A stretch of DNA of 64,000 nucleotides from Nocardioides humi (lineage in GTDB: Bacteria > Actinomycetota > Actinomycetes > Propionibacteriales > Nocardioidaceae), in NCBI RefSeq assembly GCF_006494775.1, contig NZ_CP041146.1, forward strand, positions 1,674,001 through 1,738,000. Reading direction: 5' to 3'. The notes beneath the pieces were generated by a model. That model worked only from the letters and a program-made list of their open reading frames with translations. It was not told the origin of the DNA and ran no database searches. Shown piece after piece: positions 23,093 to 40,051 of this stretch. Numbering within the stretch: the first letter of the stretch is position 1; each line of letters begins with the position of its first letter. Made by a program: the position numbers and the translations under genes.

Positions 23093-24766
23093 GTGACCGA
23101 GGGACCGTTGATCGTGCAGTCCGACAAGTCGCTGCTGCTGGAGGTCGACCACCCGCAGGCGGCGGAGTGCCGGAAGGCGATCGCGCCGTTCGCGGAGCTG
23201 GAGCGCTCGCCCGAGCACATCCACACCTACCGGCTGACGCCGCTGGGGCTGTGGAACGCGCGGGCGGCGGGGCACGACGCCGAGCAGGTCGTCGACACGC
23301 TGCTGACCTTCTCGCGCTATCCGGTCCCGCACGCGCTGCTGGTCGACGTCGCCGAGACGATGGCGCGCTACGGCCGGCTCCGGCTGGAGAAGCACCCGGT
23401 GCACGGGCTGGTCCTCGCCTCCAGCGACCGGCCGGTGCTGGAGGAGGTGCTGCGCGCCAAGAAGGTCGCCGGGATGCTCGGCGCGCGGATCGACGACGAC
23501 ACCGTGGCCGTGCATCCCTCGGAGCGCGGCAACCTCAAGCAGGCGCTGCTCAAGCTCGGCTGGCCGGCCGAGGACTATGCCGGGTACGTCGACGGGGAGG
23601 CGCACCCGATCGAGCTCGCCGAGGAGGACTGGTCGCTGCGGGACTACCAGCGCGACGCGGCGGAGTCGTTCTGGCACGGCGGGTCCGGCGTCGTCGTCCT
23701 CCCCTGCGGCGCGGGCAAGACGCTCGTCGGCGCGGCGGCGATGGCGCACGCCCAGGCGACCACGCTGATCCTGGTGACCAACACCGTGAGCGCCCGGCAG
23801 TGGAAGGACGAGCTGGTCCGTCGTACCTCCCTGACGGAGGAGGAGATCGGCGAGTACTCCGGCACCGTCAAGGAGATCCGCCCGGTCACCATCGCGACGT
23901 ACCAGGTCGTCACGACCAAGCGGAAGGGCGTCTACCCGCACCTCGAGCTGTTCGACGCGCGCGACTGGGGCCTGATCGTGTACGACGAGGTGCACCTCCT
24001 GCCCGCGCCGATCTTCCGGATGACCGCGGACCTGCAGGCGCGGCGGCGGATCGGGCTGACCGCGACCCTGGTGCGCGAGGACGGCCGCGAGGGCGACGTG
24101 TTCTCGCTGATCGGCCCGAAGCGGTACGACGCGCCGTGGAAGGACATCGAGGCACAGGGCTGGATCGCCCCGGCCGACTGCATCGAGGTGCGGGTCTCGC
24201 TGCCCGACGCCTCCCGGATGGTCTACGCCACCGCCGACCCGGAGGAGCGCTACCGGCTGGCCGCGTGCACGCCGGAGAAGCTCTCCGTGGTCAAGGACCT
24301 CGTCGACCGGCACGCCGGACAGCCGACGCTGGTGATCGGCCAGTATCTCGAGCAGCTCGCCGAGCTCGGTCTCGCCTTGGACGCTCCCGTGATCACCGGG
24401 CAGACCACGGTGAAGGAGCGGCAGCGTCTCTTCGACGCCTTCCGCTCCGGCGAGCTCGGCCTGCTGGTCGTCTCGAAGGTCGCGAACTTCTCGATCGACC
24501 TGCCGACCGCCGAGGTCGCCATCCAGGTCTCCGGCTCGTTCGGGTCGCGACAGGAGGAGGCGCAGCGGCTGGGCCGGCTGCTCCGCCCGGGCTCACCGGG
24601 GCCGGACGGGGAGCGGAAGGTCGCGCACTTCTACACGATCGTCTCCCGCGACACCGTGGACGCCGAGTTCGCGCAGAACCGGCAGCGGTTCCTGGCCGAG
24701 CAGGGGTACGCCTACCGGATCATCGATGCCGAGGACCTCGGCACGCCGTCAGCGGACCAGGCGTGA
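23093..24766 (+). CDS. XPB/Ssl2-type DNA repair helicase
   Basis: 557-aa SF2 helicase. An N-terminal damage-recognition region has PLIVQSDKSLLLEVDHP. The core follows: Q/I motif LRDYQRDA, Walker A LPCGAGKTLVGA (near 200-211), DEVH box YDEVHLLPA, GLTATLVREDGREGDVF and C-terminal motif VI EEAQRLGRLLRP. 3'-5' DNA unwinding in excision repair is the known role of XPB. Bacterial versions are common in actinobacteria. It overlaps the convergent Uma2 gene by 18 bp. Confidence 0.9.
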   Translation: MTEGPLIVQSDKSLLLEVDHPQAAECRKAIAPFAELERSPEHIHTYRLTPLGLWNARAAGHDAEQVVDTLLTFSRYPVPHALLVDVAETMARYGRLRLEKHPVHGLVLASSDRPVLEEVLRAKKVAGMLGARIDDDTVAVHPSERGNLKQALLKLGWPAEDYAGYVDGEAHPIELAEEDWSLRDYQRDAAESFWHGGSGVVVLPCGAGKTLVGAAAMAHAQATTLILVTNTVSARQWKDELVRRTSLTEEEIGEYSGTVKEIRPVTIATYQVVTTKRKGVYPHLELFDARDWGLIVYDEVHLLPAPIFRMTADLQARRRIGLTATLVREDGREGDVFSLIGPKRYDAPWKDIEAQGWIAPADCIEVRVSLPDASRMVYATADPEERYRLAACTPEKLSVVKDLVDRHAGQPTLVIGQYLEQLAELGLALDAPVITGQTTVKERQRLFDAFRSGELGLLVVSKVANFSIDLPTAEVAIQVSGSFGSRQEEAQRLGRLLRPGSPGPDGERKVAHFYTIVSRDTVDAEFAQNRQRFLAEQGYAYRIIDAEDLGTPSADQA

Positions 24767-25294
24767 CGGGACGACAGTGACCTCGAAGGGCACCGTCGCG
24801 GTCCACTCCTCGTCACCGGCGATTGCGGCGACGACCTCGTAGCGACCGTCCCGCAGCTCCCACGCCGTCAGCGCGAGCCCCTCGGTCTCGGCGTCGACGA
24901 CCCAGTAGGCGGCAACGCCCGCCTGCTCGTAGAGGCGCTTCTTGACGGTCAGGTCGCGCCGGCGGGTGGTCGGCGAGAGCACCTCGACGGCGAGGAGCGG
25001 CGGGGTGTTGAGGGCACGCTCGTCGAGCCCTTCCGGGTCCAGCACGAGGACGTCAGGCTGCACGACATCGAACTCGCTGAGCACCACGTCGAACGGCGCC
25101 TGCGAGACGCGAAGGTGCTCGGGGCAGGCGGCGTCGAGCAACACGATCAGGCGCGTGACGGCGAGTTGGTGACGCGAGCGGGGCGACGGCGACACGACGA
25201 TCTCACCCTCGATGAGCTCGTAGCGGTTGCCGTCGTCCGGCATCGCGTCGAGATCCTCGCGCGTCAACATCTCCACCGCGGCCATGCTCACCAT
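24749..25294 (-). CDS. Uma2 family (DUF820) restriction-endonuclease-like protein
   Basis: 181 aa. The PD-(D/E)XK fold is seen as YELIEGEIVVSPSP, VVQPDVLVLD and PPLLAVEVLSPTTRRRDLTVKKRLYEQAGVAAYWVVD in order, the last carrying the ExK catalytic pattern. Family members are putative nucleases of unknown role, frequent in cyanobacteria and actinobacteria. ATG 25294 or ATG 25285 could be the start. It lies between lon and the helicase. Confidence 0.8.
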   Translation of the reverse strand: MVSMAAVEMLTREDLDAMPDDGNRYELIEGEIVVSPSPRSRHQLAVTRLIVLLDAACPEHLRVSQAPFDVVLSEFDVVQPDVLVLDPEGLDERALNTPPLLAVEVLSPTTRRRDLTVKKRLYEQAGVAAYWVVDAETEGLALTAWELRDGRYEVVAAIAGDEEWTATVPFEVTVVPSRLVR

Positions 25295-25398: not shown

Positions 25399-27735
<2,337 letters not shown>

Positions 27736-27849
27736 TGCCCCTTCATTCATGCATCGTCCAATGCGTTCCGGGTTCACCCTGTTCCGGCGTTCGCGGTGGG
27801 CGAAAACCCGCGGACGAGCCGCGCGAACCGCCCGACGACCCGGCACCGG

Positions 27850-27909
27850 GTAACAAGAACCTTACGGACCAGGTAGCACCCCGTATTCCTGGCGAAACCA
27901 GAGCGAAAC
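27850..27909 (+). promoter_or_regulatory. Candidate GlnR-type nitrogen-control sites upstream of the Nit1C-type cluster
   Basis: GTATT (27883-27887), six bases, GAAAC (27894-27898), six bases, GAAAC (27905-27909) has the 11-bp periodicity of actinobacterial GlnR boxes (GTnAC-N6-GAAAC). The second upstream pair GTAAC (27850-27854), six bases, CTTAC (27861-27865) has the same spacing in inverted form. The first amidohydrolase codon is at 27933. Only partial consensus matches are present, and the link to GlnR is inference from position and cluster type. Confidence 0.45.
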
Positions 27910-27932
27910 AACCGGCTTGTGGACTTCTCTGC

Positions 27933-28760
27933 ATGGACAGGCCCACCCACGACGCCCACCGGCACATCGGCCGCCTGCCGTCGTACGGCTTCTACGGCGG
28001 ACCACCGGTCAGCCCCGACACGACGGCGCGGGCGACGGTCCGGGAGCTCTTCGCCGACCTCGACGCCGAGCGCACCGAGCGTGCCCTGGTCCTCCCGAAC
28101 TACGGGGTCCCCGACCCCGATGTCGCCTTCGACCTCAACCAGCTCGCGATCGAGGCCGCCCAGGCCGACGACAGGGTGCGCTGCGGCCTGTGGGTCTCTC
28201 CCCGGGCCTCCGACAGCGCCCGCAACGACAAGGCGCTGGCCCTTGCCGCAGAGGCCGGCGTGGTCGCCCTGAAGACCAGCTTCCTGCTGGGCGGCGCGGT
28301 GGACGCGCCGGACTCGGCCGCCGAGCTGCACAAGATCTTCACCACCGCCGCCGAGCGCGACCTGGTGGTGCACGTGCACACGTCGCCCGGCGCGGCATCC
28401 GATGTCGACCAGGTCGGCAAGCTCGTCGAGCAGTACGGCGCCTCGACGCGGATCCACCTCGTGCACCTCGGCGGCGGCATGAGCGGCCACCTCAAGCTGA
28501 TCGGCGGCCGGTTCTTCGACTGGATCGAGCGCGGTCTCCAGGTCTACACCGACACCAGCTGGGCGATCGGCTTCGCCCCCGCATGGCTGTGTCAGGAGAT
28601 CCAGCGCCGCGGCGTCGGCCACGACCGGGTCCTCTTCGCGACCGACACCCCCTGGGGCGACCACGCCGGCGAGTACGCCCGGCTGGCCGCCGCCACCGAC
28701 GACCCCGAGCTCACCGACGCGCTCTTCCGGGGCAACTTCGAGTCCCTCTACGGGGCCTGA
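27933..28760 (+). CDS. Amidohydrolase-2 family metal-dependent hydrolase
   Basis: 275 aa from ATG 27933. TIM-barrel hydrolase features: N-terminal HDAHRHIG (HxH metal site), VVALKTSFLLGG, LVVHVHTSPGA, IHLVHLGGGMSGH and the C-terminal ATDTPWGDHAGEY with the catalytic Asp. Members hydrolyse or decarboxylate amide- and carboxylate-bearing rings or small molecules. It is the first gene after the putative nitrogen-control site, 47 bp ahead of nitB, so it probably belongs to the cluster. It is not one of the seven classical Nit1C genes. A hydrolytic step on the cluster's product or substrate is a guess. Confidence 0.75.
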   Translation: MDRPTHDAHRHIGRLPSYGFYGGPPVSPDTTARATVRELFADLDAERTERALVLPNYGVPDPDVAFDLNQLAIEAAQADDRVRCGLWVSPRASDSARNDKALALAAEAGVVALKTSFLLGGAVDAPDSAAELHKIFTTAAERDLVVHVHTSPGAASDVDQVGKLVEQYGASTRIHLVHLGGGMSGHLKLIGGRFFDWIERGLQVYTDTSWAIGFAPAWLCQEIQRRGVGHDRVLFATDTPWGDHAGEYARLAAATDDPELTDALFRGNFESLYGA

Positions 28761-28807
28761 CCGCACACCCTCATCCCGCTGCACCGCCTCGCCACAAGGA
28801 GATTCCC

Positions 28808-29332
28808 ATGACCGACCTCGACGCACAGATCAAGGCCAACATGGAGGCCTCGCTCGCCGAGATCCCCCACCCGTCCCAGCCCAAGGGCACCAACCTCTAC
28901 GGGTCGACCAAGGTCTTCCCCGACTTCCAGGCCGAGGAGGGCGAGACCTACTTCACCCTGGTCCACGGGATCCCGCACGAGTCCTCGGTGAGCTTCGTCG
29001 CGATCCTCCAGGCCACCCGCGCCCTGAGGAAGGGCTTCGAGTCGGCGATCTACTTCTACGGCCCCGGCACGCTGGCGTGCATGTCGACCCGCGGCTTCCC
29101 GACGACGGGCGACTCCGGCTTCCCCGGCGAGCAGAACACGAACGGGTCCATCGAGACCTTCATCGCCGAGGGCGGGACCGTCTACTGCTGCCGGTTCGGC
29201 ATGGGCCTGCACGGCCTGCGCGAGGAGGACCTGATCGAGGGCGTGGTGCCGACGCATCCCCTGGATGTCCAGGACGCCCTCATCTACTACGCCCGCAAGG
29301 GCGCCATCATCAACTCCACCTACAACCTCTGA
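28808..29332 (+). CDS. nitB: MSMEG_0572/Sll0783 family nitrogen-starvation protein (NitB)
   Basis: 174 aa. ATG follows AAGGAGA. The conserved core is LYGSTKVFPDFQAEEGETYFTL, SAIYFYGPGTLACMSTRGFPTTGDSGFPGE in part and CCRFGMGLHGLREEDLIEGV. This is the marker protein of the Nit1C cluster. The Synechocystis homologue Sll0783 is strongly nitrogen-starvation induced and needed for normal polyhydroxybutyrate accumulation. The fold is probably DsrE-like with two adjacent Cys (YCCRF). The biochemical role is unknown. radical SAM nitD follows after 16 bp. Confidence 0.9.
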   Translation: MTDLDAQIKANMEASLAEIPHPSQPKGTNLYGSTKVFPDFQAEEGETYFTLVHGIPHESSVSFVAILQATRALRKGFESAIYFYGPGTLACMSTRGFPTTGDSGFPGEQNTNGSIETFIAEGGTVYCCRFGMGLHGLREEDLIEGVVPTHPLDVQDALIYYARKGAIINSTYNL

Positions 29333-29348
29333 ACGGGCGGACCGGATC

Positions 29349-30440
29349 ATGGCCGCGCCGGGTCTCCCGACGACCACTCCGGCGACCAGCTCCACCCGCG
29401 TGGACCTGGCCATCCAGGGCATCCGGCTCGCCGACGCGCCGGTGTCCCGCCGTGCGGGCGCCGGGCCGAGCGACGACGGGCACCTGCTGCTCGACGGCGT
29501 CGGCGCGGCCATCCCGCTCAACCCCCGCAGCCCCTACACCGTCCAGGGCGGCAAGCTCCTGCTCGACGGCGCCGACACCGGCATGGGCGTGGAGACCATC
29601 ACCCGTCCGCGGTTCTACGACCTGAACACCGCGGACGGCGTGCCCTACGAGAAGATCGCCCGCCTGCACTCGGCCCGCGTCCTCGCGACGACCGTCGTGC
29701 AGACCTGCGTCCGCTACGAGGAGTCGCAGCGCTGCCGGTTCTGCGCGATCGAGGAGTCGCTGCGCCAGGGCAGCACGATCGCGGTGAAGAGCCCAGCACA
29801 GATCGCCGAGGTCGCGCGCGCTGCGTACGAGCTCGACGGCATCACGCAGATGGTGATGACGACGGGGACGTCCAACGGCCGTGACCGGGGAGCGGTGCAC
29901 CTCGCGCGCTGCACCCGCGCCGTCCGGGAAGTGCTGCCGGACCTGCCGATCCAGGTCCAGTGCGAGCCGCCCGGCGACCTCGCCGTCATCCAGGACCTGT
30001 ACGACGCGGGCGCGCGCTCGATCGGCATCCACGTCGAGTCCCTCGACGACGCCGTGCGCCGGCACTGGATGCCCGGCAAGGGCGCGGTGCCGATGGAAGA
30101 GTACCGCGCGGCGTGGGCCGAGGCGGTCCGCGTGTTCGGCTGGAACGAGGTCTCGACCTACCTGCTGGTCGGCCTCGGCGAGGACCCCGACGAGATGATC
30201 GCCGGGGCCGAGGAGCTGATCGCGATGGGCGTCTATCCCTTCGTCGTCCCCTTCCGGCCGCTCGCGGGGACCCTCGCCACCGATGTCGACCGGGTGCCCT
30301 CGCCCGACCCGCGCGTGGTCGCGAAGGTGACCGGCCGGGTCGCCGCCGCGCTGCGCAGCGCCGGGATGCTCGGCTCGGCGCAGTCGGCCGGCTGCGCCGC
30401 GTGCGGGGCGTGCTCGGCCCTGTCCTGCGAAGGAGCCTGA
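29349..30440 (+). CDS. nitD: MSMEG_0568 family radical SAM enzyme (NitD)
   Basis: 363 aa from ATG 29349. The Fe-S cluster site is unusual: Cys120, Cys129, Cys132 (C-x8-C-x2-C) in TCVRYEESQRCRFCA, rather than C-x3-C-x2-C. The TIM-barrel strands follow, with MVMTTGTSNGRDRG as the likely SAM-contact strand. A second Cys group sits at the C-terminus (C349, C352, C355, C360) and could hold an auxiliary cluster. The reaction is not known. The position between nitB and the nitE-nitF fusion is conserved in the cluster type. Confidence 0.9.
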   Translation: MAAPGLPTTTPATSSTRVDLAIQGIRLADAPVSRRAGAGPSDDGHLLLDGVGAAIPLNPRSPYTVQGGKLLLDGADTGMGVETITRPRFYDLNTADGVPYEKIARLHSARVLATTVVQTCVRYEESQRCRFCAIEESLRQGSTIAVKSPAQIAEVARAAYELDGITQMVMTTGTSNGRDRGAVHLARCTRAVREVLPDLPIQVQCEPPGDLAVIQDLYDAGARSIGIHVESLDDAVRRHWMPGKGAVPMEEYRAAWAEAVRVFGWNEVSTYLLVGLGEDPDEMIAGAEELIAMGVYPFVVPFRPLAGTLATDVDRVPSPDPRVVAKVTGRVAAALRSAGMLGSAQSAGCAACGACSALSCEGA

Positions 30441-30442
30441 CC

Positions 30443-31873
30443 ATGACCCTCGACGTCTCCGTCCTCACCGGCCTGGCCCGCCAGGCCCCGCCGGACCGGC
30501 TCCGCGACCCGTCGTACGTCGTCGTGGAGGCCGGGCGCGCCGAGCTGGCGTCGTACCGGGCGCTGCGCCACGAGGTCTTCGTCCGCGAGCAGGGCCTGTT
30601 CGCGGACGAAGACACCGACCCGGTCGACGACGACCCGCGGACGGTGGTCCTCCTCGCCCGCGCCCACGACGGCGAGGCGCTCGGCGGCGTGCGCCTGCAC
30701 CCCGCCCCTGCCGCCGACGGCAGCCAGCCCGCCCGCGATCTCGGCTGGTGGCGCGGCAGCCGCCTGGCGGTCACCGCCGACGCCCGCCTGCACCTCGGCG
30801 TCGGCGCCGCACTCGTCCGGGCCGCGTGCGCCCGGGCGGAGGCGGAGGGGGCGCTCCGGTTCGACGCGGAGATCCAGGCCCAGCACCGCCGCCTCTTCGA
30901 GAGGCTCGGCTGGCGGGTCCGCTCCGAGCGCGTCCTGCACGGCCGTCCCCATCTCGTCGTCGACTTCCCGGTCACCCGGATCCAACGGCTGGCCGACGCG
31001 ACGAAGGCGCCGCTCGGCGGGCTGCTCGCCGAGCTCGCCGCGGGCGTGCCGGCCGGCTTCCTCGGCGACGACGCGGCGCCCGTGCCCGGCAGCGATCTGG
31101 TCGCCGCGTGCGACGCGATCCTGCCGGCGATGGTCGAGCGGGACCCCGAGTGGGCCGGCTGGTGCAGCGTGCTGGTCAACCTCAACGACCTCGCTGCCAT
31201 GGGCGCCGCGCCCGTGGGACTGCTCGACGCCGTCGGCGCCCGCGACGCTTCCTTCGCCCGCCGGATCGTGCGCGGCATCGCCGATGCCGCGGCCGCCTGG
31301 GGCGTGCCCGTCCTCGGCGGCCACACCCAGCTCGGCGTCCCGGGCGCCCTGGCCGTGACGGCCCTCGGCCGCACCGCGACGCCGGTGCCCGGCGCGGGCG
31401 GGGCTCCCGGCCAGCAGGTCCGGGTCACCGCCGATCTCGGCGGCGGCTGGCGCCACGGCTACACGGGCTCCCAGTGGGACTCGACCTCGCACCGGAGCCC
31501 GGGCGAGCTGCGGGCCCAGGCGTCCGTCGTCCCCGCCCTGCGGCCGCGGGCCGCCAAGGACGTCAGCATGAGCGGGCTCGTCGGCAGCACCGGGATGCTC
31601 GCCGAGGCGAGCGGCTGCCGGGCCGTCCTCGACGTCGCGGCGGTGCCGGCTCCCGCCACCGCCGGCACCGCCGACTGGCTCACCTGCTTCCCCGGGTTCG
31701 CGATCGTCTCGACCGAGGACCGGGCTCCCGACAACGTCCGGCTGCCGGGCCACCTCGCCAGCGCCGTCTGCGGCGAGCTCGTCCCCGGGACCGGGGTCGG
31801 CCTGCGCTGGCCCGACGGCACCGTCACCGACGCCATCACGCACACCGTCACCGGATTGGGGACCGCCTCATGA
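30443..31873 (+). CDS. MSMEG_0567 family GNAT-AIR synthase fusion (NitE-NitF)
   Basis: 476 aa. The N-terminal GNAT domain (about 20-165) has YRALRHEVFVREQGLF, ALGGVRLHP and LGVGAALVRAACARAEAEG. The C-terminal AIR synthase (PurM)-like domain (about 175-475) has FLGDDAAPVPGSD with the metal/ATP acids, LVNLNDLAAMGAAPVGLLDAV and VPVLGGHTQLGVPGALAVTALG. Many bacteria encode the two halves as separate nitE and nitF; mycobacteria and this strain fuse them. ATP-dependent activation of an amide after acyl transfer is plausible but undemonstrated. ATG lies 2 bp after the nitD stop; the 3' end overlaps nitC by 4 nt. Confidence 0.9.
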   Translation: MTLDVSVLTGLARQAPPDRLRDPSYVVVEAGRAELASYRALRHEVFVREQGLFADEDTDPVDDDPRTVVLLARAHDGEALGGVRLHPAPAADGSQPARDLGWWRGSRLAVTADARLHLGVGAALVRAACARAEAEGALRFDAEIQAQHRRLFERLGWRVRSERVLHGRPHLVVDFPVTRIQRLADATKAPLGGLLAELAAGVPAGFLGDDAAPVPGSDLVAACDAILPAMVERDPEWAGWCSVLVNLNDLAAMGAAPVGLLDAVGARDASFARRIVRGIADAAAAWGVPVLGGHTQLGVPGALAVTALGRTATPVPGAGGAPGQQVRVTADLGGGWRHGYTGSQWDSTSHRSPGELRAQASVVPALRPRAAKDVSMSGLVGSTGMLAEASGCRAVLDVAAVPAPATAGTADWLTCFPGFAIVSTEDRAPDNVRLPGHLASAVCGELVPGTGVGLRWPDGTVTDAITHTVTGLGTAS

Positions 31874-32772
31874 CCCTGATGAACCCTCCACTCGGCTCCG
31901 CCGTGGCCGCCGTCTGCGCCGGCTTCGGGCGCGACGTCGAGGAGAACCTCGCCCAGATCGCCGACCTGATCGAGCAGGCGCGCGCCGAGGGGGTCAGCCT
32001 GCTGGCCCTGCCGGAGGCCTGCCTCGGCGGCTACCTATCGGTGCTCGGCGCCGGGCGCGACGGCAGCCACGACGAGCAGCCCGAGGACCTGCCCCCGGTG
32101 ATGGACGTCGACGGCCCCGAGCTGCGCCGGGTCGCGGCCCTCGCCGGCGACATGACGGTCGTGGTCGGCCTCTGCGAGTCCGACGGGACCGACCGCTACA
32201 ACACCGCGGCGATCGTCACCGGCTCCGGCGTGCTCGGCGTACACCGCAAGGTCCACCAGCCGCTGGGCGAGTCGATGTTCTACGCCGCCGGCAGCGAGTT
32301 CGGCTGCGTGGACACGCCGGCAGGACGGGTGGGCGCGCTGATCTGCTACGACAAGGCATTCCCCGAGGCGGCCCGCGCACTGGCCGTCGACGGCGCCGAG
32401 GTGATCGCGTGCATCTCCGCGTGGCCCGCCTCGCGCACCGCCACCGGGGAGTCGATCGCCGAGGACCGGTGGACCAAGCGGTTCAACCTCTTCGACGCCG
32501 CCCGCGCCCTGGAGAACCAGGTCGTCTGGCTCGCCGCCAACCAGCACGGCACCTTCGGCAAGCTGCGCTTCGTCGCCAACGCGAAGGTCGTCGGACCGGG
32601 CGGCGACGTGCTCGCCACCACCGGCATCCGCTCCGGGATGGCCGTCGCGGAGATCGACGTGCCGAGCGCCCTGGAGACCGCCCGCCGGGCGATGTTCCAC
32701 CTGCGCGACCGCCGTCCCGACACCTACGGCGCGGTGGCCGGCGCCCCGCTCCGGGAGCCGGTCCGTGCCTGA
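31870..32772 (+). CDS. nitC: Nit1C-type nitrilase (NitC)
   Basis: 300 aa, carbon-nitrogen hydrolase superfamily. The catalytic set is intact: Glu49 in LLALPEACLGG, Lys127 in HRKVHQPLGE, Glu134, and nucleophile Cys159 in GALICYDKAFPEA. The branch-1 nitrilases of this cluster (Sll0784 type) hydrolyse nitriles to acids plus ammonia. In pseudomonads nitC is needed to grow on cyanide as a nitrogen source. The natural substrate here is unknown. It overlaps neighbours on both sides (4 and 8 nt), showing tight operon coupling. Confidence 0.9.
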   Translation: MTLMNPPLGSAVAAVCAGFGRDVEENLAQIADLIEQARAEGVSLLALPEACLGGYLSVLGAGRDGSHDEQPEDLPPVMDVDGPELRRVAALAGDMTVVVGLCESDGTDRYNTAAIVTGSGVLGVHRKVHQPLGESMFYAAGSEFGCVDTPAGRVGALICYDKAFPEAARALAVDGAEVIACISAWPASRTATGESIAEDRWTKRFNLFDAARALENQVVWLAANQHGTFGKLRFVANAKVVGPGGDVLATTGIRSGMAVAEIDVPSALETARRAMFHLRDRRPDTYGAVAGAPLREPVRA

Positions 32773-33070
32773 GATGACCTTCACGGTGCGGTGGCCCGAC
32801 GGCCGGGTCGCCGAGCACTACTCGCCCTCGCTGGTGGTGCACGACCACCTCGACGTGGGCGCGACCTACCCGGTCGCCGAGTTCCGCGACCGCTCCGCCA
32901 GAGCACTCGGCATCGCGAGCGACCGGGTCCGGGCCCGCTTCGGCTTCGCGTGCACCTCCGCCGCGGCCAGCCTCGCCGGCATCGACGAGCTCGCGGCGTC
33001 GTACCCCGCCGACGCGGCCGTCACCGTCCTCCGCCTCCACCCGCCTCTCCCCGAGGAGAACCCGTCATGA
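32765..33070 (+). CDS. nitG: MSMEG_0570 family nitrogen-starvation protein (NitG)
   Basis: 101 aa from GTG 32765, or 98 aa from ATG 32774. The conserved core is FTVRWPDGRVAEHYSPSLVV, then LDVGATYPVAEF and DRVRARFGFACTSAAASL. It is a small cluster-specific protein of unknown function with one conserved Cys in FACTSA. It overlaps nitC by 8 nt and nitH by 4 nt. Confidence 0.88.
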   Translation: MPEMTFTVRWPDGRVAEHYSPSLVVHDHLDVGATYPVAEFRDRSARALGIASDRVRARFGFACTSAAASLAGIDELAASYPADAAVTVLRLHPPLPEENPS

Positions 33071-34410
33071 GCAGCACGACCCCCACCCTCCACCGCGCCA
33101 CCGTCGCCGTCGTCGGCGGCGGCCAGGCCGGCCTGTCCGCCAGCTGGTTCCTGGTCCGCGACGGCGTCGACCACGTCGTCCTCGAGACCGGGACCGCCGG
33201 CCACGAGTGGGCCGACACCCGCTGGGACAACTTCACGCTGGTGACGCCGAACTGGCACTGCCGCCTCCCCGGCTACGAGTACGACGGACCGGACCCCGAC
33301 GGCTTCATGACCCGCGACGAGGTGGTCGCCTGGCTGTCCGGCTACGCGCCGACCTTCGGCCCACCGCTGCGCGAGCACACCCGGGTGACCGCGCTGACCG
33401 AGCGCGACGGCGGCGGCTTCCGGCTCGAGGCGACCGGCCCGGACGGGCCGGAGGTCTGGGAGGCCGACCACGTGGTGGTCGCCACCGGCGGCTACCACGT
33501 GCCGATCGTCCCGTCCTGGGCGCCGGCGCTCAACGCCTCGATCACCCAGCTGCACTCGGCCGACTACAAGTCCCCCGGGCAGCTGCCGGCGGGCGAGGTG
33601 CTGGTGGTGGGCTCCGGCCAGTCCGGCGCGCAGATCGCCGAGGACCTGCACCTCGCCGGGCGCCGGGTGCACCTCGCGCTCGGCGACGCCCCGCGGGTCG
33701 CCCGCTTCCACCGCGGACGCGACTCCATGACCTGGCTGGCCGAGATGGGGCTCTACGACACCGGTGTCGCGCAGTACCCCGGCGGCCTCGCCGCCCGGGA
33801 GAAGACCAACCACTACGTCACCGGCCGCGACGGCGGTCGCGACATCGACCTGCGCCAGTTCGCGGCCGAGGGCATGCGGCTCTACGGGCTCCTGGACTCG
33901 GGCGCCGGGACGCAGCTCTCGTTCCTGCCGAGCCTGCGCCAGGCGCTTGACAGTGCCGACGAGGTCTACCGCTCGATCTGCCGCGACATCGACCGCCACA
34001 TCGACGCGCAGGGCATCGACGCTCCCCCGGCGACGCCGTACGTCCCCGTCTGGGAGCCGGCCGAGGACCCGACGTCGCTCGACCTGGCCGCGGCCGGGAT
34101 CTCCACCGTCGTCTGGGCGATCGGCTACCGGCCCGACTACCGCTGGGTGGGTGCCGGGGTCTTCGACGGCAGCGGCCGCCCGACGCACACCCGCGGCGTG
34201 ACCTCGCTGCCCGGGCTGTACTTCCTCGGCCTGCCCTGGCTGCACACCTGGGGTTCGGGTCGCTACCTCGGCATCGCCGCGGACGCCGAGCACGTCGCCG
34301 GCGCGATCACCGGCCGGACCGGCGCCACCATCGAGAGCGCTGCGGACCTCGCCCGGCGGCGGTCGCCCGGGAGCGGCGCACGGCTCGCGGACGTCGCGCT
34401 GGCGGGCTGA
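33067..34410 (+). CDS. nitH: MSMEG_0569 family flavin-dependent oxidoreductase (NitH)
   Basis: 447 aa with two dinucleotide folds. The FAD site is VAVVGGGQAG (GGGQAG at 17-22) and VVVATGGYHVP near 137-147. The NAD(P)H site is VLVVGSGQSGAQIAEDL (GSGQSG at 182-187). The FMO-like segment IGYRPDYRWV and the C-terminal YFLGLPWLHTWGSG complete the family. It resembles flavin monooxygenases that oxygenate a nitrogen or sulfur atom. It closes the co-directional, overlapping nit core (ATGA with nitG). Confidence 0.9.
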   Translation: MSSTTPTLHRATVAVVGGGQAGLSASWFLVRDGVDHVVLETGTAGHEWADTRWDNFTLVTPNWHCRLPGYEYDGPDPDGFMTRDEVVAWLSGYAPTFGPPLREHTRVTALTERDGGGFRLEATGPDGPEVWEADHVVVATGGYHVPIVPSWAPALNASITQLHSADYKSPGQLPAGEVLVVGSGQSGAQIAEDLHLAGRRVHLALGDAPRVARFHRGRDSMTWLAEMGLYDTGVAQYPGGLAAREKTNHYVTGRDGGRDIDLRQFAAEGMRLYGLLDSGAGTQLSFLPSLRQALDSADEVYRSICRDIDRHIDAQGIDAPPATPYVPVWEPAEDPTSLDLAAAGISTVVWAIGYRPDYRWVGAGVFDGSGRPTHTRGVTSLPGLYFLGLPWLHTWGSGRYLGIAADAEHVAGAITGRTGATIESAADLARRRSPGSGARLADVALAG

Positions 34411-34418
34411 GCCCGGGA

Positions 34419-34424
34419 TAGGTT
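34419..34424 (+). promoter_or_regulatory. -10 box for the second nitrilase-like gene
   Basis: TAGGTT, seven bases, then GTG 34432. This suggests a separate leaderless transcript for the nitrilase-like and glycosyltransferase genes within the cluster. Confidence 0.5.
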
Positions 34425-34431
34425 GACGCCC

Positions 34432-35304
34432 GTGGGAGTCCAGCGCATCGGTGCCGTCGCGGCGCACTTCGGCCGCGACCTGGCGCGGGCGCTGGCGAAG
34501 ATCGAGGGCATCGTGGCCGACGCGCGCGCGGCCGGCGTCGGGCTCCTGGTGCTGCCCGACGCCACCCTCGGCGGCTACCTGTCCGACCTGCGCCGGCCCG
34601 ACCCCGCGGCACTGCCGCCCGGGCTGACCGAGGACTCGTGGGAGGTGCAGCGGATCGCGGCGCTGGCCGGCGACATGGTCGTCTGCCTCGGCTACACCGA
34701 GGAGGCCGTCCTCGACGGGCAGCCGCGGCTGTTCAACACCGCCCTGTGTGTGCACGGCTCGGGGGTGCTCGGGCGCCACCGCAAGGTGCACCAGCCCGCC
34801 GGCGAGTCCCTCGTGTACGACGCCGGGGACTCCTTCGCCGCCTTCGACACCCCCGTCGGCCGGCTCGGCCTGCTCATCGACTACGACAAGACCTTTCCCG
34901 AGGCGGCGCGTTCCCTGGCCCTGGACGGCGCCACCACGCTGGCGTGCCTGTCGGCGTGGCCCGCGTCGGTCACCGACCGCGCCTCACGGCTCCCGCAGGA
35001 CCGCCAATCACGGCTCTTCGACCTCTACGACTGCGCCCGCGCGGCGGAGAACCAGGTGATCTGGGTGTCCTCCAACCAGACCGGCGTGATGGGCGGCCTG
35101 CGCTTCCTCGGGCAGGCGAAGGTGGTCGGCCCGGGCGGCGACATCCTCGCCCGGACGTCGTCCAAGGGCGGCCTGGCCGTCGCCGAGGTGGACGTCGAGG
35201 CCGAGGTGGCCCGGGCCCGGCGGGTGCTCCACCACCTCGAGGAGCGCACGCCCGCCGCCTACCGGGCGATGCGGTCCACCGACTGCGGCCCGCAGCCGGG
35301 ATGA
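34432..35304 (+). CDS. Nitrilase-superfamily protein lacking the catalytic Cys and Glu
   Basis: 290 aa from GTG 34432 (a TTG at 34423 is possible). It aligns along its length with NitC: LLVLPDATLGGYLS against LLALPEACLGGYLS, HRKVHQPAGES against HRKVHQPLGES, and LLIDYDKTFPEAARSL against ALICYDKAFPEAARAL. The catalytic Glu is Asp43 and the nucleophile Cys is Asp150, while Lys118 and Glu125 are kept. Without the nucleophile it cannot do nitrilase chemistry. It may be a regulatory or structural partner of NitC or a changed enzyme. Its stop overlaps the glycosyltransferase start (ATGA). Confidence 0.85.
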   Translation: MGVQRIGAVAAHFGRDLARALAKIEGIVADARAAGVGLLVLPDATLGGYLSDLRRPDPAALPPGLTEDSWEVQRIAALAGDMVVCLGYTEEAVLDGQPRLFNTALCVHGSGVLGRHRKVHQPAGESLVYDAGDSFAAFDTPVGRLGLLIDYDKTFPEAARSLALDGATTLACLSAWPASVTDRASRLPQDRQSRLFDLYDCARAAENQVIWVSSNQTGVMGGLRFLGQAKVVGPGGDILARTSSKGGLAVAEVDVEAEVARARRVLHHLEERTPAAYRAMRSTDCGPQPG

Positions 35305-36407
35305 GCATGCGGATCGCGCTGCTGACCTACTCCACGAAGCCGCGCGGCGGGGTGGTGCACACCCTCGCCCTCGCCGAGGCGCTGGCCGATCTGGGCGCTG
35401 CCGTCGACGTGTGGACGCTCGCACGCGACGGCGACACCGCCTTCTTCCGCGCGGTCGACCCGCGGGTCGGGGTCCGGGCGGTGCCCTTCCCGCCCGTCGA
35501 GGACGAGGAGGTGGGCGAGCGGATCGTGCGGTCGATCGCAGTGCTCCGTGACGCCTTCGCGGCCGAGCGGGCGTCGTACGACGTCGTGCACGCGCAGGAC
35601 TGCATCAGCGCCAACGCCGCCCTCCCCTGCGTGCGCACCATCCACCACCTCGACCAGTTCACCACGCCCCAGCTGGCGGCCTGCCACGAGCGGGCCGTCG
35701 TGGAGCCGATCGCGCGGATCTGCGTGTCGGCGGCGGTCGCCGCCGAGGTCGAGGCCGGCTGGGGACTGGTCCCGACGGTCATCCCGAACGGTGTCGCCGC
35801 CGAGCGCTTCTCAGCCGGCGCCGCCGACACCGCCGGCCGGGGCCGGTGGCGCGAGCGGATCGGTGGCCGCTACCTGCTCGCGCTGGGCGGCATCGAGCCG
35901 CGCAAGGGCAGCATCGACCTGCTCGAGGCGCACGCGCTGCTGGTCGCGCGGGAGCCGGCCATGGCCGATGTCCGCCTGGTGTTCGGCGGTGGCGAGACGC
36001 TCTTCGACTACCGCGACTACCGCGCCGCCTTCGAGGCGCGGGCCGCGGAGCTCGGCACCGCTCCCGTCGTTCTCGGGCCGGTCGCCGATGACGAGCTGCC
36101 CGCGCTGGTCGGCGAGGCGGCCGCCCTCGGATTCGTGTCGACCAAGGAGGGCTTCGGGCTCGCCGCGATGGAAGGGCTCGCCGCCGGCGTGCCCGTGGTG
36201 GCGCGGGATCTGCCGGTGCTGCGCGAGGTCTTCGCCGACACCGTCGCGTACGCCGACGGCGTGCCCGCGATCGCCGATGCGCTGGGCGTCGCCCTCACCA
36301 CGCCGCCGACGCCCGCCGCCGGGCGTGACCTGGCGGCGCGGTACACCTGGCGGGCCGCCGCCGAGGCGCACCTCGGCTTCTACCGAGGGCTCGCGATCAG
36401 GCCCTGA
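35301..36407 (+). CDS. MSMEG_0565 family glycosyltransferase
   Basis: 368 aa, GT4/GT-B fold. The N-terminal IALLTYSTKPRGGVVHTLAL is the acceptor-side glycine loop. The C-terminal half has LLALGGIEPRKGSIDLLEA and the donor-binding EGFGLAAMEGLAAGVPVVARDLPVL with the E-x7-E pattern. The family is defined by its link with the nitrogen-starvation cluster, which suggests the pathway product is glycosylated. It overlaps the convergent lipoprotein gene by 11 bp. Confidence 0.88.
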   Translation: MSMRIALLTYSTKPRGGVVHTLALAEALADLGAAVDVWTLARDGDTAFFRAVDPRVGVRAVPFPPVEDEEVGERIVRSIAVLRDAFAAERASYDVVHAQDCISANAALPCVRTIHHLDQFTTPQLAACHERAVVEPIARICVSAAVAAEVEAGWGLVPTVIPNGVAAERFSAGAADTAGRGRWRERIGGRYLLALGGIEPRKGSIDLLEAHALLVAREPAMADVRLVFGGGETLFDYRDYRAAFEARAAELGTAPVVLGPVADDELPALVGEAAALGFVSTKEGFGLAAMEGLAAGVPVVARDLPVLREVFADTVAYADGVPAIADALGVALTTPPTPAAGRDLAARYTWRAAAEAHLGFYRGLAIRP

Positions 36408-37386
36408 CGCTGCGACAGTCGCGGCTCTGCAGCCCGACGCCCTCCCAGTCCCAGCCCGGGACGCCGATCTTCGTCGTCTGGAACTCCTCGTCGATGCGCG
36501 CCCGCTCGCCGGACTCCAGCGCCGCGAGCCGCTCGCCGTAGAGCCGCGCGCGGTCCTCGGCGAGCTGGAGGTCGCTCGCCCAGGCCTCGGCGATCCCGGC
36601 GTCGGCGACCCCGTCGGCGGGGACGGCGGCGAGGTCGTCGTACGTCGCCTGCCACTCGTCGCGCAGCGCGCGCAGGTCGCCGACCATCGCGTCGGTCACG
36701 TCGAGGTCGTCGCCCTGCCGGACCGCGAGCACCACCTCCAGCGACGTGGTGGCCGCGTCGTCGTATCCGCTGGTCCGGCGCCGGTCCACGATGGTGCCGC
36801 AGGCGACCGAGGCGGCCCGCACCAGCTCCTCCGCCTCTGCTGCCGGGCCGGCGACCGCCGCCAGCACCTCGCAGTCGCGGCCGGCAAGACCGCTCGCCTC
36901 CGCGGCGTCCCGGTCGGCCGAAGCGAACGGCGCGCCCAGGGAGAGCTCGTCCTTGCTGAGCGGCCACCGGCCCGACTCCAGGCCCTCGACGCGGCTGCCG
37001 AGCACCTCGATCGTCTCGTCCAGCGGCGCGAGCAGATCCTCCCAGCCATCCAGTGCGGAGGCATCGGCAAGCCGGTCTCGATCGGCCTGCAGCAGGTCGC
37101 GCACGGCAGACATGGCATCGACCAACTCGCTCCGCTCCGCCGCGGACGGCGCCTCATCCTTCAGGCTGAGGGTGAGCAGTTCGAACCCCGCATCCTGCCC
37201 GGCCCGGAAGACCGCCTCGTCGCGCTCGTTGAGCACGGCCGTGCACTGCGCGGCCGCTGCGGCGATGTCGTCGACCGGCTCCGCGGGCCTGGTCGGCTCC
37301 GCCCCGCCCGCGTCGTCGGAGCAGGCCGCGAGCGCGGGCGACAGGAGCAGCGGCACGACCAGCAGGGCACGACGGCGCGACTTCAT
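36397..37386 (-). CDS. Predicted lipoprotein, function unknown
   Basis: 329 aa. A signal peptide MKSRRRALLVVPLLLSPALA precedes the lipobox Cys (LAAC). The mature part is mostly charged alpha-helix with probable coiled-coil stretches and scattered Cys (QCTAVL, RDCEVL, VACGTI, SRDCRS), likely two disulfides. I do not recognise a family. It is monocistronic and convergent with the glycosyltransferase. Confidence 0.7.
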   Translation of the reverse strand: MKSRRRALLVVPLLLSPALAACSDDAGGAEPTRPAEPVDDIAAAAAQCTAVLNERDEAVFRAGQDAGFELLTLSLKDEAPSAAERSELVDAMSAVRDLLQADRDRLADASALDGWEDLLAPLDETIEVLGSRVEGLESGRWPLSKDELSLGAPFASADRDAAEASGLAGRDCEVLAAVAGPAAEAEELVRAASVACGTIVDRRRTSGYDDAATTSLEVVLAVRQGDDLDVTDAMVGDLRALRDEWQATYDDLAAVPADGVADAGIAEAWASDLQLAEDRARLYGERLAALESGERARIDEEFQTTKIGVPGWDWEGVGLQSRDCRSVRA

Positions 37387-37450: not shown

Positions 37451-38128
37451 TCAGGCCTCCTTCGCCGCCAGCGGCACGCCGAGCCGGTCGCGGAGCTCCG
37501 CCAGGCCGATCCCCCAGGTGGCGCGGACGACGACCTCCGGGCCGCCGAGCTCGAAGACGCCGTGGTCGGTATACACGCGGCTCACGCAGGCGACGCCGGT
37601 GAGCGGGTAGGTGCAGGCCGGGACCAGCTTGGGCGAGCCGTCCTTGCCGAACAGCGCCATCATCACCAGCACGTCCTTGGCGCCGATGGCGAGGTCCATC
37701 GCGCCGCCCACGGCGGGGATCGCGTCCGGCCGGCCGGTGTGCCAGTTGGCGAGGTCGCCGTTGGCGGCGACCTGGTAGGCGCCCAGCACGCAGACGTCGA
37801 GGTGACCGCCGCGCATCATCGCGAACGAGTCGGCGTGGTGGAAGTACGACGCCCCGGGCAGCTCGGTGACGGGCACCTTGCCGGCGTTGGTGAGGTCCGG
37901 GTCGACCTGGTCGCCGTGAGCGGCCGGCCCCATGCCGAGCATGCCGTTCTCGGTGTGCAGGACGACGCCTTGATCCGGGGTCAGGTGGTCGGCGATCTTG
38001 GTGGGCTGGCCGATGCCGAGGTTCACGAAGGAGCCCTCGGGGATGTCGCGGGCGATCACCACGGCGAGCTCGTCCATGGTCAGCGGGCCGCGGTCGAGGT
38101 TCTCGACGGTGGTGGCGAGCGTGGTCAT
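37451..38128 (-). CDS. pcaJ: 3-oxoadipate CoA-transferase subunit B
   Basis: 225 aa. Family I CoA-transferase beta subunit with the catalytic-Glu motif near HTENGMLGMGP (ENG), GSFVNLGIGQP near the start and GGAMDLAIGAKDVLVMMALF. With subunit A it moves CoA from succinyl-CoA to 3-oxoadipate. The catechol genes close by support this over acetoacetate transferase. ATG overlaps the subunit A stop (ATGA). Confidence 0.85.
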   Translation of the reverse strand: MTTLATTVENLDRGPLTMDELAVVIARDIPEGSFVNLGIGQPTKIADHLTPDQGVVLHTENGMLGMGPAAHGDQVDPDLTNAGKVPVTELPGASYFHHADSFAMMRGGHLDVCVLGAYQVAANGDLANWHTGRPDAIPAVGGAMDLAIGAKDVLVMMALFGKDGSPKLVPACTYPLTGVACVSRVYTDHGVFELGGPEVVVRATWGIGLAELRDRLGVPLAAKEA

Positions 38129-38820
38129 CGTGCCCCCTGCACGGTGTAGTGGCGCTCCTCCACGGCGACCACGCGGTCGACGTAGATGGAGGGCGTGACG
38201 ACGGCCTCGGGGTCGAGGGTGCCGGTGTCGACCACGCCGCTCACCTGGGCGATCGTGGTCGTCGCGGCAGCGGCCATCACCGGGCCGAAGTTGCGGGCGG
38301 TCTTGCGGTAGACGAGGTTGCCGAGGCGGTCGGCGCGGTGCGCGGAGATCAGGGCGTAGTCGCCCTTGACGGGGTACTCGAGCAGGTACTCCCGCCCGTC
38401 GATGACCCGCGACTCCTTGCCGTCGGCGAGCGGCGTGCCGACCGCGGTCGGGCTGTAGAAGGCGCCGATGCCGGCGCCCGCGGCGCGCATCCGCTCGGCG
38501 AGGTTGCCCTGCGGGACGACCTCCAGCTCCAGGCGCCCGGCGAGGTAGAGCTCGTCGAAGACGTACGAGTCGGCCTGGCGCGGGAAGGAGCAGACCACCT
38601 TGCGCACCCGGCCCGCCTTGAGCAGCGCCGCGAGCCCGACCTCGCCGTTGCCGGCGTTGTTGGACACGATCGTCAGGTCCGTCGCCCCCTGCCGGATGAG
38701 GGCGTCGATCAGGTCGAAGGGCATCCCGGCGAGCCCGAATCCCCCCACCAGGACGGTCGATCCGTCCTCGATCCCGGCGACGGCCTCGTCGGCGGTGTCG
38801 AGCAGTGCGGTGCGGGCCAT
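38125..38820 (-). CDS. pcaI: 3-oxoadipate CoA-transferase subunit A
   Basis: 231 aa. Alpha subunit with DGSTVLVGGFGLAGMPFDLI, VSNNAGNGEVGLAALLKAGRV and FYSPTAVGTPLADGKE. It pairs with PcaJ. It overlaps the thiolase stop by one base, so the order pcaF-pcaI-pcaJ is a single transcription unit read leftward, beginning near 40004. Confidence 0.85.
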   Translation of the reverse strand: MARTALLDTADEAVAGIEDGSTVLVGGFGLAGMPFDLIDALIRQGATDLTIVSNNAGNGEVGLAALLKAGRVRKVVCSFPRQADSYVFDELYLAGRLELEVVPQGNLAERMRAAGAGIGAFYSPTAVGTPLADGKESRVIDGREYLLEYPVKGDYALISAHRADRLGNLVYRKTARNFGPVMAAAATTTIAQVSGVVDTGTLDPEAVVTPSIYVDRVVAVEERHYTVQGAR

Positions 38821-40004
38821 CAGCGCGCCTCGAGGTTCTCGAGGACGACGGCGAGGCCCTGGCCGACGCCGATGCAGATGCCGGCGACGCCCCAGCGCTG
38901 GTTCGTCTCGCGCAGCACCTTGGCCAGGGTGCCGACCAGGCGGCCGCCGGACGCGCCCAGCGGGTGACCGAGGGCGATCGCGCCGCCGCGCCGATTGACG
39001 ATCTCGGGATCGATCGGCCACGCGTCGACGCAGGCGAGCGACTGCACCGCGAAGGCCTCGTTGAGCTCGACCGCCCCCACCTCGGACCAGCCGATCCCGG
39101 CCCGCTCCAGCGCCGCGTTGGCGGCCTCGACGGGGGCGTAGCCGAACGCCTGCGGCTCGAGGGCGTACGCCGCCCGGCCGGCCACGCGCGCCAGCGGCGC
39201 CGTACCGATCCGGTCGGCGGCCGCCTCCGAGCCCAGCAGGACCGCGGAGGCGCCGTCGCTGAGCGGCGAGGCGTTGCCGGCGGTGATCGTGCCGTCCTTG
39301 CGGAAGACCGGCGCGAGGCCCGCGAGGGAATCCGGTGTGCTGCCGGCCCGGATGCCCTCGTCGCGGGCGAGGTCGGTGCCCTCGACCGGGGCGACGAGGT
39401 CGTCGTAGAACCCGTCCTCCCAGGCCTGGTGCGCTCGCTGATGGGAGCGGGCCGCGAAGGCGTCCTGCCGCTCGCGGGAGATCCCGAACCGCTCCTGGAG
39501 CTGCTCGTTGGCCTCGCCGAGGCTGACCGTCCACTCCTCCGGCATCCGCGGGTTGACCAGCCGCCAGCCCAGCGCGGTCGAGACCGCGGTGACGTCGCCG
39601 ACGGGGAAGGCGCGGTCCGGCTTCGGGAGCACCCACGGGGCGCGGGTCATCGACTCGACGCCGCCGGTCAGGACGACGTCCGCGTCGCCGGTCTCGATGG
39701 CACGGGAGCCGGCCATGACCGCCTCGAGGCTGGAGCCGCAGAGGCGGTTGACCGTGACGGCGGGGACGCTCACCGGGACGCCGGCGAGCAGGGCGGCCAT
39801 CCGGCCGACGTTGCGGTTGTCCTCCCCGGCCCCGTTGGCGTTGCCCCAGACGATGTCGCCGATCGCGGCCGGGTCGAGCCCCGGCGTACGGGCGAGGACG
39901 GACGACACGACCGCGGCGCCCAGGTCGTCGGTGCGGACGCCCGCCAGGGCACCGTTGAACCGGCCGAAGGGCGTACGGACCGCTGCATAGACGAAGGCGC
40001 TCAC
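38820..40004 (-). CDS. pcaF: 3-oxoadipyl-CoA thiolase
   Basis: 394 aa from GTG 40004. Thiolase catalytic residues: Cys in VNRLCGSSLEAV, His in GGAIALGHPLGASGGRL and the C-terminal Cys in GVAGICIGVGQG. It cleaves 3-oxoadipyl-CoA to succinyl-CoA and acetyl-CoA, the last step of the beta-ketoadipate pathway. A generic acetyl-CoA acetyltransferase is possible by sequence alone; context favours PcaF. Confidence 0.85.
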   Translation of the reverse strand: MSAFVYAAVRTPFGRFNGALAGVRTDDLGAAVVSSVLARTPGLDPAAIGDIVWGNANGAGEDNRNVGRMAALLAGVPVSVPAVTVNRLCGSSLEAVMAGSRAIETGDADVVLTGGVESMTRAPWVLPKPDRAFPVGDVTAVSTALGWRLVNPRMPEEWTVSLGEANEQLQERFGISRERQDAFAARSHQRAHQAWEDGFYDDLVAPVEGTDLARDEGIRAGSTPDSLAGLAPVFRKDGTITAGNASPLSDGASAVLLGSEAAADRIGTAPLARVAGRAAYALEPQAFGYAPVEAANAALERAGIGWSEVGAVELNEAFAVQSLACVDAWPIDPEIVNRRGGAIALGHPLGASGGRLVGTLAKVLRETNQRWGVAGICIGVGQGLAVVLENLEAR

Positions 40005-40029
40005 GGATCCGACCGTAGGGCCGGGAGTT

Positions 40030-40051
40030 GATATTGTGAAGGATCAATATC
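40030..40051. promoter_or_regulatory. LysR-type palindrome between pcaF and the first LysR gene
   Basis: GATATTG (40030-40036), eight bases, CAATATC (40045-40051) is a perfect 7-bp inverted repeat in the 72-bp divergent region. Position and T-N11-A-like form fit a LysR operator controlling both directions. Confidence 0.6.

What the first reader, a model, noticed from the sequence alone, without database searches (positions are those of the whole stretch)
27933..36407. Complete Nit1C / MSMEG_0565-0572-type cluster with two extra genes
All seven Nit1C functions are present in one direction (nitB, nitD, a nitE-nitF fusion, nitC, nitG, nitH), mostly with 4-8 nt overlaps. They are extended by an amidohydrolase at the front and a nitrilase-like protein plus family-specific glycosyltransferase at the end. 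Related clusters are linked to nitrogen starvation (cyanobacteria, mycobacteria) and to growth on cyanide as a nitrogen source (pseudomonads). Nitrilase, radical SAM, acyltransfer, AIR-synthase chemistry, flavin oxygenation and glycosyl transfer together look like a biosynthetic route to a nitrogen compound more than simple degradation.
Basis: partly seen in the sequence, partly recalled or inferred. Interest (0 to 1): 0.8.

Follow-up and report, generated by a model that had tools for sequence, protein, structure and literature searches.

The report
Nitrogen-starvation operon with non-thiol nitrilase twin
An actinobacterial nitrogen-starvation gene cluster carries, beside a normal nitrilase-type enzyme, a conserved twin in which the reactive cysteine is an aspartate in every copy examined, so a protein labelled as an amidase probably has a different job that can now be tested.

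Summary
The nine-gene operon is real and its coordinates are exact, but it is not a 'complete Nit1C with two extra genes'. The nitrilase that defines Nit1C (TIGR04048) is absent: 'NitC' scores 55 bits against a cut-off of 502.6, and 0 of 21 nit-cluster genomes tested reach it. Another carbon-nitrogen hydrolase (CN1, Glu-Lys-Cys intact) takes its place. The glycosyltransferase and a second nitrilase-like gene belong to the known MSMEG_0565-0572 (gpr) cluster; the amidohydrolase is a common partner.

The new point is that second gene (CN2). Its nucleophile Cys is Asp and its general-base Glu is never Glu, in 105 of 105 distinct sequences from fetched loci; CN1 keeps both wherever readable. CN2 forms one clade (100/99), is more conserved than CN1 in the same 31 genomes, models as a full nitrilase fold (pLDDT 90), and neighbours the glycosyltransferase in 106 of 107 loci holding both. 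A GlnR-type box lies 39 nt upstream of the operon and recurs in relatives.

CN2 is thus a kept, non-thiol nitrilase-fold protein. Most likely it is a binding or specificity subunit of the glycosyltransferase step; partner and ligand are not shown.

The parts
27894..27910 (+). GlnR-type box GAAAC-N6-GAAACA, 39 nt upstream of the first gene
   Evidence: Matches the published M. smegmatis motif Gn2AC-n6-GnAACA (PMC3662644); motif in 46 of 95 distinct upstream regions, 37 of 95 at -42 to -38; controls 11 of 2970 random windows, shuffles mean 1.3 and at most 5 of 95. Binding not shown.
27933..28760 (+). amidohydrolase (PF04909)
   Evidence: Pfam 59.3 bits, cut-off 26.4; next to nitB in 80 of 80 CN2 loci holding both.
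28808..29332 (+). NitB, MSMEG_0572/Sll0783 family
   Evidence: TIGR04044 240.4 bits.
29349..30440 (+). NitD, MSMEG_0568 family radical SAM protein with CX8CX2C cluster motif
   Evidence: TIGR04043 502.5 bits; CX8CX2C spacing in 122 of 126 NitD matches.
30443..31873 (+). NitE-NitF fusion, GNAT + AIR-synthase-like, MSMEG_0567 family
   Evidence: TIGR04045 and TIGR04050 over cut-off.
31870..32772 (+). CN1, C-N hydrolase in the place of NitC; Glu-Lys-Cys intact
   Evidence: PF00795 130 bits; TIGR04048 55 bits, cut-off 502.6; E, K, second E and C kept in 48 of 48.
32765..33070 (+). NitG, MSMEG_0570 family
   Evidence: TIGR04042 116.9 bits.
33067..34410 (+). NitH, MSMEG_0569 family flavin-dependent oxidoreductase
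   Evidence: TIGR04046 621.7 bits.
34423..35304 (+). CN2, nitrilase-fold paralogue of CN1 (52% identical) with Asp153 at the nucleophile position and Asp46 at the general-base position; K121 and E128 kept. TTG start as listed; a GTG start at 34432 is also possible.
35301..36407 (+). MSMEG_0565 family glycosyltransferase (GT4 type), 4-nt overlap with CN2
   Evidence: TIGR04047 434.5 bits; adjacent to CN2 in 106 of 107 loci holding both.

Best explanation
This is the actinobacterial form of the nit cluster: a nitrogen-starvation operon, probably switched on by GlnR, that makes or converts a small nitrogen-containing metabolite. CN1, not a Nit1C nitrilase, does the C-N hydrolysis. CN2 is a paralogue of CN1 with a single origin that lost thiol hydrolase chemistry: Asp stands for Cys, the general-base Glu is gone, and further conserved positions differ (Arg198 to Leu, Trp195 to Gln). 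It kept the fold, Lys121, Glu128 and many shared conserved residues. Shown here: the substitutions, their invariance in the sequences examined, single origin, stronger conservation than CN1, predicted fold, gene order. Inferred: D153 pairs with K121, so CN2 binds but does not hydrolyse. Proposed mechanism: CN2 is translated with the glycosyltransferase and serves its step as a ligand-binding or specificity subunit, holding the acceptor (perhaps the CN1 product) for glycosylation. My confidence is about 0.93 that CN2 is not a thiol hydrolase, 0.95 that it is functional, and 0.45 that its partner is the glycosyltransferase.
For: CN2/CN1 52% identical, with C to D and E to D visible in the alignment. 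D at the nucleophile in 240 of 240 proteins examined, the best 120 listed of each of two searches that found 5818 and 4359; 31 of 31 in the class survey including the window; 80 of 80 named loci; 105 of 105 distinct sequences from 111 matches in fetched loci (general base D 92, G 6, H 3, Q 2, Y 2). CN1: of 123 distinct pieces Cys was readable in 120 and Glu in 120, always present. CN2 clade 100/99. Same 31 genomes: mean pairwise identity CN2 0.671, CN1 0.626, CN2 higher in 382 of 465 pairs. CN2-GT adjacent in 106 of 107, median gap -4 nt, across several gene orders. In the class survey 32 of 33 CN2 genomes also have the glycosyltransferase over cut-off. AlphaFold2 pLDDT 89.8, best PDB matches carbamoylases and amidases. 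GlnR box.
Against: The glycosyltransferase occurs without CN2: 21 of 53 genomes with it over cut-off lack CN2, so it does not need CN2 everywhere. One genome has CN2 alone, without cluster or glycosyltransferase (L221). Other gene pairs are kept as strictly as CN2-GT. Partial correlation of distance matrices does not single out a partner: CN2 with GT 0.22, CN1 0.23, NitD 0.22. Adjacency does not prove a complex. No ligand, product or assay.
Confidence: 0.45

Rival explanations
1. CN2 is a regulatory or structural partner of CN1: a hetero-oligomer of an active and an inactive subunit, comparable to the paralogous nitrilase heteromers of sorghum (NIT4A/NIT4B).
For: CN1 and CN2 are paralogues and CN1 is present in 79 of 80 named CN2 loci. 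Heteromeric sorghum nitrilases are described (PMC5154151, passages read). CN1 directly precedes CN2 in 36 of 109 loci holding both.
Against: CN1 occurs without CN2 in 16 of the 21 CN2-less clusters of the class survey. CN1-CN2 adjacency is not kept across gene orders while CN2-GT is. The residue switches go beyond loss of activity. No interface test was possible.
Confidence: 0.3
2. CN2 is an enzyme with new chemistry: Asp153 with Lys121 and Glu128 acts as acid/base or nucleophile in a non-thiol reaction, for example an acyl or amide transfer or a ligase-like step.
For: Asp153 is invariant (105 of 105) instead of drifting as in a decayed site; K121 and E128 kept in 31 of 31; new conserved Q195 and L198.
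Against: The general-base position varies (D, G, H, Q, Y), unlike a catalytic residue. No nitrilase-superfamily enzyme with an Asp nucleophile showed in the search listings.
Confidence: 0.2
3. CN2 is an ordinary active amidase feeding nitrogen assimilation, as the annotation 'aliphatic amidase' of MSMEG_0566 suggests.
For: PF00795 well over cut-off and published annotation and reading (PMC4222082, PMC4617892, PMC6039565).
Against: Cys and Glu of the triad are missing in every CN2 examined. MSMEG_0566 itself was not fetched; it is taken as CN2 by gene order.
Confidence: 0.03
4. CN2 is a decaying pseudogene.
For: Loss of two catalytic residues.
Against: Open frame, 78 invariant positions, more conserved than CN1, one origin kept in many genera.
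Confidence: 0.01

Closest known systems
MSMEG_0565-0572 (gpr) cluster of Mycobacterium smegmatis
   Same: Same families: glycosyltransferase, two C-N hydrolases, GNAT-AIRS fusion, radical SAM, flavin oxidoreductase, NitG, NitB; GlnR control published. The order NitB-CN1-NitG-NitH-NitD-NitEF-CN2-GT in four CN2 loci, two of Gordonia and two of the class-survey family that holds M. rutilum, fits 0572 to 0565, so MSMEG_0566 should be CN2 and 0571 CN1 (inferred; those two sequences were not fetched).
   Different: Gene order; amidohydrolase at the front here. [quoted passage not shown] 'catalytic' does not occur in that paper's text).
Nit1C cluster (Podar 2005; Pseudomonas, cyanobacteria, Burkholderia)
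   Same: NitB, NitD, NitE, NitF, NitG and NitH families.
   Different: Subfamily 1 nitrilase absent, replaced by CN1; a CN2 is present. Cyanide growth is tied to NitC in Pseudomonas (PMC11049912, passages read).
N-carbamoylputrescine amidase / D-carbamoylase branch of the nitrilase superfamily
   Same: Fold and best structural matches of CN2 (6lei, 5h8l, 1j31/6ypa).
   Different: About 22-24% identical in those matches; catalytic Cys and Glu missing in CN2.

Membership tests
Nit1C | subfamily 1 nitrilase (NitC; TIGR04048) | tested here: not met
   CN1 55.1 and CN2 22.6 bits against 502.6; no match over cut-off in the whole genome or in any of 21 nit-cluster genomes. Seven of the 21 carry a more distant relative (161-257 bits) elsewhere, none at the nit cluster.
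Nit1C | NitB, NitD, NitE, NitG and NitH families | tested here: met
   TIGR04044, 04043, 04045, 04042, 04046 all over cut-off.
Nit1C | NitF, AIR-synthase-like (TIGR04049) | tested here: inconclusive
   TIGR04049 174.8 bits, under its cut-off 321.3; the sister model TIGR04050 446 bits, over its cut-off 312.2.
Nit1C | growth on cyanide or nitriles | not testable with these tools
   Needs an experiment.
MSMEG_0565-0572 (gpr) cluster | 0565 glycosyltransferase, 0567 fusion, 0568, 0569, 0570, 0572 families | tested here: met
   TIGR04047, 04045+04050, 04043, 04046, 04042, 04044 over cut-off.
MSMEG_0565-0572 (gpr) cluster | two C-N hydrolases (0566, 0571) | tested here: met
   CN1 and CN2; the match to 0571 and 0566 is by gene order, not by comparing those two sequences.
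MSMEG_0565-0572 (gpr) cluster | GlnR control | tested here: inconclusive
   Motif present and recurrent; binding and expression not tested.
active thiol C-N hydrolase (for CN1) | PF00795 fold and Glu-Lys-Cys triad | tested here: met
   activity not tested.
active thiol C-N hydrolase (for CN2) | PF00795 fold | tested here: met
   109.8 bits; model pLDDT 89.8.
active thiol C-N hydrolase (for CN2) | catalytic Lys | tested here: met
   K121 in 31 of 31.
active thiol C-N hydrolase (for CN2) | catalytic Cys | tested here: not met
   Asp in 105 of 105 distinct sequences.
active thiol C-N hydrolase (for CN2) | catalytic Glu | tested here: not met
   D, G, H, Q or Y, never E, in 105 of 105.

The most novel reading that the evidence does not exclude
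CN2 founds a branch of the nitrilase superfamily that works without the thiol: an invariant Asp-Lys-Glu pocket carries out a new, non-hydrolytic step (or hands an activated acyl or amide group to the neighbouring glycosyltransferase) in a nitrogen-starvation pathway shared by many actinobacteria.
Probability: 0.25. Interest if true: 0.82.

Novelty: new variant of a known kind. Interest (0 to 1): 0.6.

Why it matters
The nit cluster is widespread, strongly induced by nitrogen starvation in M. smegmatis, and its product is not named in the papers I looked at. If the actinobacterial form uses a different hydrolase, and its supposed amidase cannot work as one, that changes which gene to test for what, and goes against the published suggestion that MSMEG_0566 contributes to nitrogen assimilation as an amidase (PMC6039565, PMC4617892). 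Deleting the cluster lowers the NADPH/NADP ratio in M. smegmatis biofilms (PMC6039565, passage read), and losing the NitB-family gene sll0783 stops the shift towards NADPH in Synechocystis (PMC3901256, passages read), so the genes that both share, not the nitrilase type, may explain the phenotype (inference). A conserved Cys-to-Asp nitrilase paralogue is also a clean case of how a hydrolase fold is reused.

Tried and rejected
Complete Nit1C: rejected on TIGR04048. Extra genes peculiar to this strain: rejected by the surveys. Distance-matrix partner test for CN2: inconclusive. Rooting CN1 against CN2 with six other C-N hydrolases of the same genome: outgroups too distant (end branches 4 to 10), so only the single origin of CN2 is used, not the direction; one CN1 from another class (L127) with a long branch falls next to the CN2 clade. 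A pattern hit in G516 is a chance low-complexity match and was dropped. Paper searches for a Nit1C product or a nitrilase pseudoenzyme found neither in the listings (open-access library only, some lists capped, most listed papers not opened, so absence is weak). The second structure job, pdb_via and the third protein search were not used.

Limits: one of the two patterns that fetched the 80 named loci contains the Asp motif, and only the best 80 of 580 relatives were kept, so that set is biased towards it; the set chosen by the glycosyltransferase family is not. CN1 and CN2 were told apart by best BLAST score, backed by the tree. The class-survey and named sets overlap in species, so the counts 31 and 80 are not independent; removes identical sequences only. 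The unreadable CN1 pieces come from split genes in L146 and L207. Random control windows for the GlnR motif are mostly coding DNA; the shuffle control uses the upstream regions themselves.
Full report
What is there. Nine genes run in one direction from 27933 to 36407 in a 6.22 Mb genome; the window has 73% G+C and the first CN2 homologues listed with an organism name are Nocardioides. The genes are bounded by a divergent Lon protease gene (25399-27846, minus) and a convergent gene without a Pfam match (36397-37386, minus). Starts were read: amidohydrolase 27933, NitB 28808, NitD 29349, NitEF 30443, CN1 31870, NitG 32765, NitH 33067, CN2 34423, glycosyltransferase 35301. Curated models confirm NitB, NitD, both halves of NitEF, NitG, NitH and the glycosyltransferase.

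The hydrolase is not NitC. Podar et al. [quoted passage not shown] The model for that family, TIGR04048, gives CN1 55 bits against a cut-off of 502.6. Over whole genomes, none of 21 nit-cluster genomes reaches the cut-off, the window's own included; one of 14 control genomes does. Seven of the 21 have a more distant relative of 161 to 257 bits, on another contig or more than 600 kb from the nit cluster. CN1 nevertheless keeps Glu, Lys, the second Glu and Cys in 48 of 48 sequences, so it should be an active hydrolase of another branch. Its best sequence matches in the PDB are PH0642, N-carbamoylputrescine amidohydrolase and a nitrilase (1j31, 5h8i, 3ivz).

The genes are not extras. In 394 genomes of the class, the glycosyltransferase passes its cut-off in 53. 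Gene maps of 51 fetched genomes of these and of 80 named loci show a recurring set; in the named loci CN2 80, CN1 79, NitEF 79, GT 78, NitH 76, NitD 73, NitB 72, amidohydrolase 58, NitG 53 of 80, several loci being cut by contig ends. Five of the 51 are of another kind, with a 39-41% identical glycosyltransferase and neither CN1 nor CN2. In more distant members of the phylum the amidohydrolase stands beside NitD in 6 of 9 short loci (L014-L022), and three longer ones also have a glycosyltransferase 7 to 8 kb from NitD (L222-L224).

CN2. CN1 and CN2 are 52% identical. At the nucleophile CN2 has Asp153, at the general base Asp46; Lys121 and Glu128 are kept. The PDB alignment shows the same: D153 lies on the mutated catalytic Cys (Ala) of 6ypa, and D46 on its Glu. 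The Asp holds in 120 of 120 listed homologues of the window protein, 120 of 120 listed homologues of a Mycolicibacterium rutilum protein, 31 of 31 in the class survey and 105 of 105 distinct sequences from all fetched loci with gene maps. The general base varies (D 92, G 6, H 3, Q 2, Y 2) but is never Glu. A negative charge at 153 next to Lys121 would make a second one at 46 unfavourable; this fits only in part, since Asp is still the commonest residue at 46 (inference).

CN2 is kept by selection. All 31 CN2 rows form one clade with support 100/99. Over the same 31 genomes CN2 is more conserved than CN1 (0.671 against 0.626; higher in 382 of 465 pairs). Beside C to D, positions 198 (R to L), 208 (L to A) and 274 (D to E) are fixed differences in these genomes, and W195 (30 of 31 in CN1) is Q in CN2. 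This looks like a changed role, not decay. The AlphaFold2 model is a full nitrilase fold (pLDDT 89.8, pTM 0.87), closest to D-carbamoylases and amidases.

Partner. In 110 loci with CN2, CN2 and the glycosyltransferase are neighbours in 106 of 107 that hold both, median distance -4 nt, touching or overlapping in 79 of 106. The gene upstream of CN2 changes (NitH 65, CN1 36, NitEF 7 loci), so the pair is kept while the rest is reshuffled. Against this: other pairs are kept as strictly (amidohydrolase-NitB 80 of 80, NitG-NitH 68 of 68, NitD-NitEF 101 of 102), the glycosyltransferase lives without CN2 in 21 of 53 genomes, a lone CN2 exists (L221), and the distance-matrix test is undecided. Hence the modest confidence.

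Regulation. The 17-bp GlnR motif of M. smegmatis is Gn2AC-n6-GnAACA (PMC3662644, passage read). The window has GAAACCAGAGCGAAACA at 27894-27910. The motif without its last base occurs in the 150 nt upstream of the amidohydrolase in 46 of 95 distinct regions, 37 of 95 at -42 to -38, against 11 of 2970 random windows of the same loci and a mean of 1.3, at most 5, of 95 in 50 dinucleotide shuffles. A related motif searched in 300 nt before the first gene was found in 36 of 64 loci that begin with the amidohydrolase but only 5 of 52 that begin with another gene, so the box is not seen in every lineage. GlnR control of the M. smegmatis operon and its effect on peroxide resistance are published (PMC6039565, passages and discussion read), and its deletion lowers the NADPH/NADP ratio in biofilms. 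In Synechocystis the sll0783 mutant (NitB family) no longer shifts towards NADPH under nitrogen starvation (PMC3901256, passages read). These agree although the nitrilase type differs, which points to the shared genes (inference).

Verdict. The operon is a member of the known actinobacterial nit/gpr kind and not a full Nit1C. The part that I found nowhere described, as far as these searches reach (passages on MSMEG_0566 read in all three papers that name it), is the Cys-to-Asp nitrilase paralogue tied to the glycosyltransferase.

Noticed in passing
window 29349-30440: NitD has a CX8CX2C iron-sulphur motif instead of the usual CX3CX2C; 122 of 126 NitD matches in the fetched loci share it. The usual spacing is recalled.
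   Followed up: partly
L221:9342-10205: A lone CN2 (still with Asp) in G319 without any nit cluster, followed by a gene that looks like an aldose epimerase by eye.
   Followed up: partly
L098:8018-9616: A cluster of one family (f86) that lacks CN2 has a different protein, FAD-dependent by eye, between CN1 and the glycosyltransferase.
   Followed up: no
L146, L207: In Nocardioides sp. TF02-7 and Streptomyces sp. P3 several nit genes appear as two or more pieces, as if split by frameshifts or duplicated.
   Followed up: no
window 24749-25294: Uma2-family putative endonuclease gene beside lon.
   Followed up: no
window 37451-40047: Two adjacent minus-strand frames with CoA-transferase domains downstream of the cluster.
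   Followed up: no
window 32765-32772 (and PMC6039565, discussion): The paper proposes selenocysteine read-through of the MSMEG_0571 stop into 0569; in the window the equivalent CN1 stop overlaps the start of the conserved NitG family gene, so an ordinary stop is the simpler reading.
   Followed up: partly
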